NCBI RefSeq assembly: GCF_000158195.2
Contig: NZ_GL987991.1
Coordinates: 1 to 50,928 of the forward strand
Direction: 5' to 3'
Length of the DNA stretch: 50,928 nt
Source: Fusobacterium mortiferum ATCC 9817
GTDB taxonomy: Bacteria; Fusobacteriota; Fusobacteriia; Fusobacteriales; Fusobacteriaceae
Notes under the pieces: model-generated
What the model saw: the letters and a program-made list of their open reading frames with translations, nothing else
The model's database searches: none
Told to the model about the DNA's origin: nothing
Made by a program: the position numbers and the translations under genes
Shown: positions 6,735 through 44,388 of the stretch, piece by piece
How positions within the stretch are numbered: the stretch's first letter is position 1
How the letters are laid out: every line of letters starts with the position of its first letter

Positions 6735-6852
6735 TAGAAGAAAATAAAACAAGGGAATGTATTTTTTTAGAAAATGATAATTATTAATATAATTAATATC
6801 TTTTTTCATAAAAAACAAGAAATAATATATATAATTCTCAGTATTTCTTTTC

Positions 6853-6882
6853 TTGACGGAAATGTTTGAAGTATTATATAAT
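6853..6882 (+). promoter_or_regulatory. Promoter of the cobalamin operon
   Basis: TTGACG at 6853-6858, an 18-base spacer, and TATAAT at 6877-6882. The expected start near 6889 places the B12 riboswitch at the very 5' end of the transcript. Confidence 0.7.
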
Positions 6883-6900
6883 ATTTAAAGAAAAGATAAG

Positions 6901-7068
6901 TAAAATTTTAAGTAGAGGGAAACAAGTGAAATTCTTGTACGGTCCCGCCACTGTAATGAGGACGAAAGTACATTAGCCACTGAGGAATTGGGAAGGAGTA
7001 CAAGTAGGTTGAATCAAAGTCAGGATATCTCGCTTAAAATATTTAACTATCCTGCGTGGACGGGAGGA
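6901..7068 (+). promoter_or_regulatory. Cobalamin (adenosylcobalamin) riboswitch
   Basis: The leader contains the B12-box signatures: GGTCCCGCCACTGT (6951-6964), a second GCCACTG (6976-6982), and AGTCAGGATATCTCGC (7018-7033). The closing helix P1 is formed by AAATTTTAAG and CTTAAAATATTT on either side. Downstream, CCTGCGTGGACGGGAGGAG (7051-7069) can form the L13 kissing loop with the CCCGCCAC loop. It also contains a ribosome binding site, which suggests translational control. It controls the following cob/cbi operon. Confidence 0.95.
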
Positions 7069-43533: not shown

Positions 43534-43726
43534 AACCACTCCTTTATCTTATACTAATTATATCATAAATTGGAGCAGAGAGGAATATTAAAACTTTAAA
43601 TTTATTTTTTATCAAATCTTAAAAAAAATGGAAAATATCAAATTATATACTTTAGATTGTAAATAGTACCTCCATTAACCGTTTCAGAGTAATAAAAAAT
43701 AAAACAATAAAATAATAAAGATAAAA

Positions 43727-43760
43727 AGAGGTATAGAAATATACTCTATACCCCTTAATT
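43727..43760 (-). terminator. Terminator after the 118-residue gene
   Basis: Minus strand GGGGTATAG / CTATACCTC with one wobble, followed by TTTTTATCTTTATT. The rest of 43540-43764 has no visible gene. Confidence 0.7.
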
Positions 43761-43764
43761 AAAA

Positions 43765-44121
43765 CTAGTGTATTTTTTGTGCTTCTACTTTATGATATAA
43801 TGCAATATATCCTTTGGTAAATAAAAGTTCATCTTCACTGTAATTACTATTTGGATTATTTTGAGCATATCCAAGAATTGACATAGCTTTTAAATAAACA
43901 TCTTCAGACATATTACGGTTAGAAGTATTAGTTACAGTTAGTCCTGATCCTTCAACTGAAGTTATATATGCTATATTTGTTGTCGTGTCGACTAAATCTC
44001 TACAATGTAAATTTACATCTTTTAATCTTGAACTAAAACTTTTTAAAAATACTTTTAATTGTTCAACTGACATCCCAGTTAAGCGTTTTTCCATATTTTG
44101 ATATTTAATATTGTTTATCAT
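43765..44121 (-). CDS. Uncharacterised 118-residue protein
   Basis: Not recognised. It has a strong AAGGAGG site 7 bases before ATG and local codon usage. It is soluble, with a helical N-terminal half (EKRLTGMSVEQLKVFLKSFS) and a threonine/asparagine-rich centre (TSVEGSGLTVTNTSNRN). No signal peptide. It follows the ietAS genes in the same direction but is separated by the plus-strand ncRNA region, so it is probably transcribed separately. Confidence 0.6.
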   Translation of the reverse strand: MINNIKYQNMEKRLTGMSVEQLKVFLKSFSSRLKDVNLHCRDLVDTTTNIAYITSVEGSGLTVTNTSNRNMSEDVYLKAMSILGYAQNNPNSNYSEDELLFTKGYIALYHKVEAQKIH

Positions 44122-44146: not shown

Positions 44147-44175
44147 TTGACTTTAGAGAAATATTATGCTAAAAT
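44147..44175 (+). promoter_or_regulatory. Plus-strand promoter of candidate ncRNA
   Basis: TTGACT (44147-44152), 17 bases, TAAAAT (44170-44175) with TGC just before the -10 (extended -10). It points against both neighbouring genes. Confidence 0.6.
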
Positions 44176-44181
44176 AATTTT

Positions 44182-44388
44182 AACTTAGATAGTTATAGTA
44201 GCATAAATTCTCAAAGAATTAATTATCGATTTTTAATAATTAATCCTTTTATGCTAAAAAATAAATCTTGCCAGGATTTATTGCAACTAACAAATAAAGT
44301 GCCAATTTATTTGTTAAACCAATCTATAACATAAACAGCTTTAAGCTGGAATTTTTAAGAAGGAGTTTTAATCTCCTTTTTATTTTAT
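44182..44388 (+). ncRNA. Candidate structured ncRNA beside the IetAS system
   Basis: Between promoter and terminator lie five hairpins and no frame with a start site. H1: TAGCATAAA (44199-44207) with TTTATGCTA (44248-44256), enclosing ATTAATTAT/ATAATTAAT. H2: AATAAATC (44260-44267), loop TTGCCAG, GATTTATT. H3: AACAAATAAA (44289-44298), loop GTGCCAA, TTTATTTGTT. H4: CAGCT-TTA-AGCTG. H5: AAGGAG-TTTTAAT-CTCCTT then TTTATTTT (terminator). H2 and H3 share the loop core TGCCA. Convergent with ietS. Family unknown; expression not shown. Confidence 0.55.
44360..44388 (+). terminator. Terminator of the candidate ncRNA
   Basis: AAGGAG / CTCCTT stem, loop TTTTAAT, tail TTTATTTT on the plus strand. Confidence 0.75.

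What the first reader, a model, noticed from the sequence alone, without database searches (positions are those of the whole stretch)
44147..44388. Undescribed-looking ncRNA next to the IetAS defence genes
A TTGACT-17-TAAAAT extended promoter leads into five consecutive hairpins and a terminator, on the strand opposite to both neighbours. Two adjacent hairpins have different stems but the same loop core TGCCA (TTGCCAG and GTGCCAA), a pattern of protein- or RNA-binding loops. The location beside a protease/ATPase defence pair raises the possibility of a regulatory or sensing RNA for the system.
Basis: partly seen in the sequence, partly recalled or inferred. Interest (0 to 1): 0.72.

Follow-up and report, generated by a model that had tools for sequence, protein, structure and literature searches.

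The report
Prophage RNA paired with orphan gene

Summary
In detail: 44147-44388 (+) has an extended -10 promoter, five hairpins, twin TGCCA loops and a terminator, and it folds far better than shuffles (z -4.6). Rfam has no family for it. The link to IetAS does not hold. None of the five genomes with close IetS relatives carries the neighbouring gene, and the 3' flanks of IetS that could be read, in four of them, lack the RNA. The RNA belongs with the gene on its other side, a 118-aa orphan at 43765-44121 (-). A 3'-domain pattern hits 4 of 98 Fusobacteriota genomes (control 0), each time divergent from a homologue of that gene. A covariance model built from the three Cetobacterium copies alone finds the window (45.6 bits; best other genome 23.5). 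Neighbours are prophage or defence genes. My best reading is a two-gene RNA/protein module, probably an RNA antitoxin that binds its protein. It resembles type III and AbiF/RCd22 systems but is divergently transcribed, so I do not file it as a member. Extended antisense pairing was tested and not found. Function and transcription are untested.

The parts
44147..44175 (+). extended -10 promoter of the RNA (TTGACT-17-TAAAAT)
   Evidence: same layout and spacing in L034, L035, L036
44164..44206 (.). dyad over the -10 region; suggests a second, face-to-face -10 for the 118-aa gene
   Evidence: 12 of 14 pairs; one search finds 14 of 16 in L034, weaker without gaps in L035/L036; the reading as a promoter is inference
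44182..44388 (+). predicted RNA, about 207 nt
   Evidence: z -4.61; start inferred from the promoter, end from the terminator
44199..44256 (+). hairpin P2, seen only in the window copy
   Evidence: absent from the predicted folds of the relatives
44260..44282 (+). twin hairpin h1, loop TTGCCAG
44288..44316 (+). twin hairpin h2, loop GTGCCAA
   Evidence: stem keeps pairing through double changes against relatives
44320..44354 (+). most conserved segment: CAATCTAT linker and CAGC...GCTG hairpin
44356..44382 (+). intrinsic terminator
43765..44121 (-). 118-aa orphan gene, the conserved partner of the RNA
   Evidence: no Pfam, PHROG, NCBIfam, PADLOC or PDB relative
43726..43756 (-). terminator of the 118-aa gene

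Best explanation
The RNA and the divergent 118-aa gene form one small mobile module carried in prophage and defence regions of Fusobacteriaceae (shown by co-occurrence). The RNA is made from its own promoter and ended by its own terminator, and it presents two neighbouring hairpins that share one loop or loop core (shown in sequence, transcription inferred). Most likely the RNA holds the 118-aa protein in check by binding it directly through the twin hairpins, like an RNA antitoxin. The facing, overlapping promoters would set the RNA-to-mRNA ratio, and loss of the RNA, for instance when a phage shuts down transcription, would free the protein (all inferred).
For: RNA pattern in 4 of 98 genomes, control 0 of 98, all four next to a 118-aa homologue. 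Model R1, built only from L034, L035 and L036, gives the window 45.6 bits, E 1.3e-4, the best hit in its genome; the next best genome reaches 23.5 bits. Twin loops are identical within each Cetobacterium RNA and share a core in the window, yet differ between species. Stem h2 keeps pairing: 8 of 15 paired positions are double changes between L034 and L035 or L036, and 5 to 6 of 10 to 11 between the window and the others (loop-anchored). Folds: z -3.0, -2.2, -4.1 in the relatives. The fifth homologue (L045) also faces a structured stretch with terminator, z -5.24, though unrelated in sequence. Neighbours are prophage or defence genes. A close functional precedent is AbiF/RCd22: a prophage ncRNA with two repeated hairpin motifs, promoter and terminator that neutralises its protein by direct binding (PMC12373285, passages).
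Against: Only four RNA loci are known, two of them (L035, L036) close to each other. No toxicity, binding or expression data. The protein is not clearly basic (pI 6.6 to 9.0) and has no fold match (mean pLDDT 63 with two sequences in the alignment; no Foldseek hit at E 0.001). The RNA is divergent, not upstream on the same strand as in type III. The loops are TGCCA in the window but GGC-type in Cetobacterium, so no single RNA-strand motif is conserved for a protein to read. L045 lacks this RNA family.
Confidence: 0.4

Rival explanations
1. Antisense control of the 118-aa mRNA, as in divergent type I modules: the twin loops pair next to the Shine-Dalgarno of the gene and block translation.
For: In the Cetobacterium loci the leader has a hairpin whose right arm (GCCAAA or GCCGAA) abuts GGAG, and the loops (UUUGGC or UCGGC) are complementary to it, with one matching change between L034 and L035/L036. 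Shuffle P by duplex energy 0.02 to 0.04 for each of the three.
Against: The window loops have no partner in their own leader (P 0.5 to 0.9). The longest perfect complementarity between RNA and cognate mRNA is 9 to 11 nt in 4 of 4 loci, against 8 to 12 for non-cognate pairs. A scan of whole RNAs against leaders gives P 0.07, 0.57, 0.64 and 0.003, and the best sites are not the same sites across loci.
Confidence: 0.2
2. A trans-acting RNA, such as a phage immunity RNA, whose loops are seeds for targets elsewhere, possibly the leaders of rival 118-aa units on other phages.
For: Window h1 pairs with 7 to 8 perfect bases (up to -14.4 kcal/mol) with the left arm of the leader hairpin of all three Cetobacterium 118-aa genes (shuffle P 0.002 to 0.005).
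Against: Window h2 does so only weakly (P 0.11 to 0.21). This comparison was found by looking, not planned, and the match may reflect a shared ancestral motif. Targets next to Shine-Dalgarno sites in the own genome cannot be told from chance: 44 hits.
Confidence: 0.15
3. A regulator of some other kind for the 118-aa gene: transcriptional interference between facing promoters, with an RNA that need not bind anything.
For: Dyad over the -10 in the window and L034; every copy is divergent.
Against: Does not explain the conserved twin loops, compensated stems and conserved 3' hairpin.
Confidence: 0.12
4. DNA-level elements (operators, an att site or a mobile repeat) rather than an RNA.
For: The hairpins are dyads, and GGC/GCC motifs occur in either strand. 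An inverted duplication in Cetobacterium sp. 2A is centred in h2.
Against: Promoter and terminator are kept on one strand in 4 of 4 loci, no copy was found without the gene, and no att-like direct repeat above 13 bases was found near it.
Confidence: 0.08
5. One reading: a regulatory or sensing RNA of IetAS.
For: Adjacency in the window only.
Against: IetAS relatives lack it; the RNA occurs without adjacent IetAS.
Confidence: 0.05

Closest known systems
AbiF/RCd22 of Clostridioides difficile prophage phi027 (PMC12373285, passages read)
   Same: Prophage-borne, near the holin; ncRNA with two repeated hairpin motifs, own promoter and terminator, beside one protein gene
   Different: RCd22 lies upstream on the same strand and reads into abiF; it matches RF03085 and its protein is the AbiF family. 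Here the RNA is divergent, has no Rfam match, and the protein is a 118-aa orphan
Type III toxin-antitoxin systems such as ToxIN (PMC5086642, passages read)
   Same: Repeated RNA element next to a small protein gene in mobile or defence settings
   Different: Type III genes share one promoter with the RNA repeats upstream; the RNA is a pseudoknot and the toxin an endoribonuclease. The first is not met here; pseudoknot and activity are unknown
Divergent type I modules (tisB/istR-1, shoB/ohsC, zor/orz, dinQ/agrB; PMC4147584, passages read)
   Same: Small RNA divergent from the protein gene
   Different: Type I antitoxins have about 18 nt of complementarity or more and mostly small hydrophobic toxins; here at most 11 nt and a soluble 118-aa protein
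SymE/SymR (PMC4147584, passages read)
   Same: A larger (113 aa), not hydrophobic protein controlled by an RNA
   Different: SymR lies directly opposite the start of symE; here the RNA does not cover the gene start

Membership tests
Type III toxin-antitoxin | RNA repeats upstream of the toxin on the same strand, one promoter, terminator between | tested here: not met
   RNA is on the opposite strand in 4 of 4 loci
Type III toxin-antitoxin | repeated RNA unit | tested here: inconclusive
   two hairpins sharing a loop, centres 31 to 37 nt apart, but not full sequence repeats
Type III toxin-antitoxin | toxin is a ToxN/TenpN/CptN-type endoribonuclease | tested here: inconclusive
   no Pfam, NCBIfam, PADLOC or PDB sequence match; no fold match, but the model is weak
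Type III toxin-antitoxin | direct RNA-protein neutralisation | not testable with these tools
   needs experiment
AbiF with RCd22-type RNA | RNA motif RF03085 | tested here: not met
   no match in window or relatives
AbiF with RCd22-type RNA | protein of the AbiF (Abi_2) family | tested here: not met
   no Pfam or PADLOC match
Type I toxin-antitoxin | extended complementarity to the toxin mRNA, 18 nt or more | tested here: not met
   longest 9 to 11 nt; non-cognate 8 to 12
Type I toxin-antitoxin | small hydrophobic toxin (usual, not universal) | tested here: not met
   GRAVY -0.37 to -0.48
IetAS defence system | RNA accompanies ietAS in relatives | tested here: not met
   absent from the four IetAS flanks that could be read; 118-aa gene absent from all five genomes
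Known Rfam RNA family | match above gathering score | tested here: not met

The most novel reading that the evidence does not exclude
An undescribed class of RNA-neutralised module, so far seen only in Fusobacteriota phage and defence regions: a twin-hairpin RNA made from a promoter facing that of its 118-aa orphan partner guards that partner, and the loop sequence changes with the lineage as a specificity tag, so that each phage's RNA answers only its own, or its rival's, unit.
Probability: 0.25. Interest if true: 0.75.

Novelty: new variant of a known kind. Interest (0 to 1): 0.52.

Why it matters
RNA-controlled protein modules on prophages are a growing part of phage defence, and I found none described for Fusobacteriota in the searches made. 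This gives a precise, testable pair (RNA plus 118-aa gene) with four natural variants, and it moves attention from IetAS to the right gene.

Tried and rejected
IetAS association: rejected. Rfam, including weak matches: nothing credible. Direct DNA relatives in phages and plasmids: none. DNA search of the genus: matches other than the locus itself were short; of these L006 and L010 were read and showed no such RNA, the rest were not read. Viral contigs: no RNA pattern, no protein relative in five scans. Phage records: no protein. Plasmids: only C. somerae NZ_CP092520. Weak protein hits at E 0.005 to 0.1 in eight further genomes were re-scored with the family profile, best 13.4 bits, and dropped. 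Extended antisense: no excess. Small ORF: not conserved. Own-genome targets of the loops: 44 pattern hits, not told from chance; a Cetobacterium-type leader was not found in the own genome with up to 3 mismatches. att-like repeats: at most 13 bases, chance-like.

Limits of the counts: R1 was built without the window, but I chose its boundaries after seeing the window aligned. E-values are rough and one search used strict filters on 40 candidates per genome. Stem h2 was counted with a loop-anchored alignment in my own script because the aligner put L034 one base out of register; the attempt with the counting tool failed on string length and was not repeated. L045 was left out of the RNA model because it lacks the RNA. 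Foldseek was run against the PDB library only.

Full report
What is there. On the + strand, TTGACT-17-TAAAAT with an extended -10 (44147-44175) leads into a stretch that folds at -46.9 kcal/mol against -27.3 for shuffles (z -4.61) and ends in an intrinsic terminator at 44356-44382. P2, h1 and h2 are also enclosed by a closing helix in the predicted fold. No Rfam family matches. The promoter match alone is no better than chance in this AT-rich DNA; conservation makes it credible. The opposite strand folds almost as well (z -4.2), so folding alone does not fix the strand; promoter and terminator do.

Whose RNA it is. Among 98 Fusobacteriota genomes, 15 have an IetS match at E 0.001 or better, the window's own included; five others are close. 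Their flanks were taken. None of the five genomes has the 118-aa gene. In the four with a readable 3' flank the RNA model gives at most 15.2 bits; the fifth contig ends 122 bases after IetS. The more distant IetS-like hits were not examined.

The gene on the other side, 118 aa at 43765-44121 (-), has five intact copies in 4 of 98 genomes: the window, Cetobacterium sp. 2A (L034/L051), G017 (L035 and L045) and G021, which matches C. somerae (L036, plasmid record NZ_CP092520). Cetobacterium sp. 2A also has broken copies. Eight further genomes gave weak hits that did not stand up. In L034, L035 and L036 the same element stands divergent from the gene: -35, 17 bases, extended -10, two hairpins with one loop, CAATYTAT linker, CAGC...GCTG hairpin, terminator. 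A pattern for the last part hits 4 of 98 genomes with 0 control hits, once each, at these loci. That pattern was written with the window in view, so I also built a model from the three Cetobacterium copies only. It finds the window with 45.6 bits and E 1.3e-4, where the next genome reaches 23.5 bits and E above 1.

Anatomy and change. Within each Cetobacterium RNA the two loops are identical (CGGCAA twice in L034, TTGGCG twice in L035 and L036); in the window they share TGCCA. Hairpin centres are 31 nt apart in the window and 36 to 37 in the others (from the coordinates). Stem h2 keeps pairing through 8 double changes in 15 paired positions between L034 and L035, and 5 to 6 of 10 to 11 between the window and each other. 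These counts rest on few, AT-rich sequences. P2 and the closing helix are seen only in the window's predicted fold. The -10 region is a dyad in the window (12 of 14) and L034 (14 of 16), weaker without gaps in L035 and L036. I read this as two facing -10 elements, one for each transcript; that is inference.

The fifth homologue, L045 in G017, has no copy of this RNA. It still faces a strongly structured stretch with a terminator (z -5.24), beyond which lies a UG5-nitrilase type defence reverse transcriptase. That stretch may belong to either gene.

Context. The window unit, with IetAS, stands between a host-type gene (AP endonuclease family) and a prophage: holin and endolysin in the window, tape measure, portal-type and terminase genes beyond it. 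In C. somerae it stands between HTH and M78 peptidase genes and a Fic gene; holin and baseplate genes follow. G017 has HTH, M78, a PDC-S70-like protein, the unit, then Fic of the PDC-S04 type. Cetobacterium sp. 2A has a similar order with a resolvase in place of Fic. The unit is thus mobile cargo of phage and defence regions.

The protein is an orphan: no Pfam, PHROG, NCBIfam, PADLOC or PDB sequence relative. A model from two sequences has mean pLDDT 63 with four helices, and Foldseek finds nothing at E 0.001 in the PDB. It is soluble by composition (GRAVY -0.37 to -0.48) and not clearly basic. Invariant residues in five sequences include H39, C40, D42 and D45.

How it might work. Three readings were compared. 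(a) Antisense: in Cetobacterium the loops match the arm next to the Shine-Dalgarno (P 0.02 to 0.04 each), but the window's loops match nothing in their own leader (P 0.5 to 0.9), and the longest complementarity to the cognate mRNA (9 to 11 nt) is no more than to non-cognate ones (8 to 12). The review read here gives 18 nt as the lower end for type I (PMC4147584, passages). (b) Direct binding of the protein: fits twin loops kept alike within each RNA, compensated stems and the AbiF/RCd22 precedent, where a prophage RNA with two hairpin motifs binds and silences its protein (PMC12373285, passages). Against it, the loop letters are on opposite senses in window and Cetobacterium. (c) Action on foreign targets: window h1 pairs with 7 to 8 bases in all three Cetobacterium leaders (P 0.002 to 0.005), h2 only weakly; a post hoc find. 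I favour (b) at about 0.4, with (a) at 0.2 and (c) at 0.15.

Known or new. It is not type III by gene order, not AbiF by RNA or protein, not type I by complementarity (membership table). Searches for Fusobacterium, Cetobacterium, IetAS and RNA antitoxin papers (search listings only, except the papers named here) listed nothing that describes it; the library holds only open-licence papers. The F. nucleatum transcript paper (PMC11005410: abstract, outline and one passage) has no mention of prophage in its main text. I rate it a new variant of a known kind, with function open.

The host: the window's genome carries no name in the tools; that it is Fusobacterium in the wide sense is my inference from its relatives.

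Noticed in passing
L061 about 6.7-6.9 kb (NZ_JACFAJ010000004.1, Cetobacterium sp. 2A): An inverted duplication of the 118-aa locus is centred inside hairpin h2 of the RNA; could be a fold-back assembly artefact or a real rearrangement.
   Followed up: partly
L060 7945-8235 and 8730-11894: A structured, terminator-ended stretch (z -5.24) lies between the fifth 118-aa homologue and a UG5-nitrilase type defence reverse transcriptase; it may be an RNA of either.
   Followed up: partly
window 44164-44174 and 44249-44259: An 11-base direct repeat TTATGCTAAAA joins the promoter -10 region and the 3' arm of P2, so that the 118-aa leader could pair with the RNA over 11 bases.
   Followed up: partly
G000:C5 77022-77053 and 226039-226069: Two gene starts in the own genome share a leader of the type TGGCATAG-TCCTCA-AGGAGGA with a self-paired Shine-Dalgarno; the first lies in the same prophage region.
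   Followed up: no
window 6852-7051: Cobalamin riboswitch (RF00174).
   Followed up: no
L031 2712-4947: The IetS relative of G095 reads in pieces with stop codons, a decayed copy or sequencing errors.
   Followed up: no
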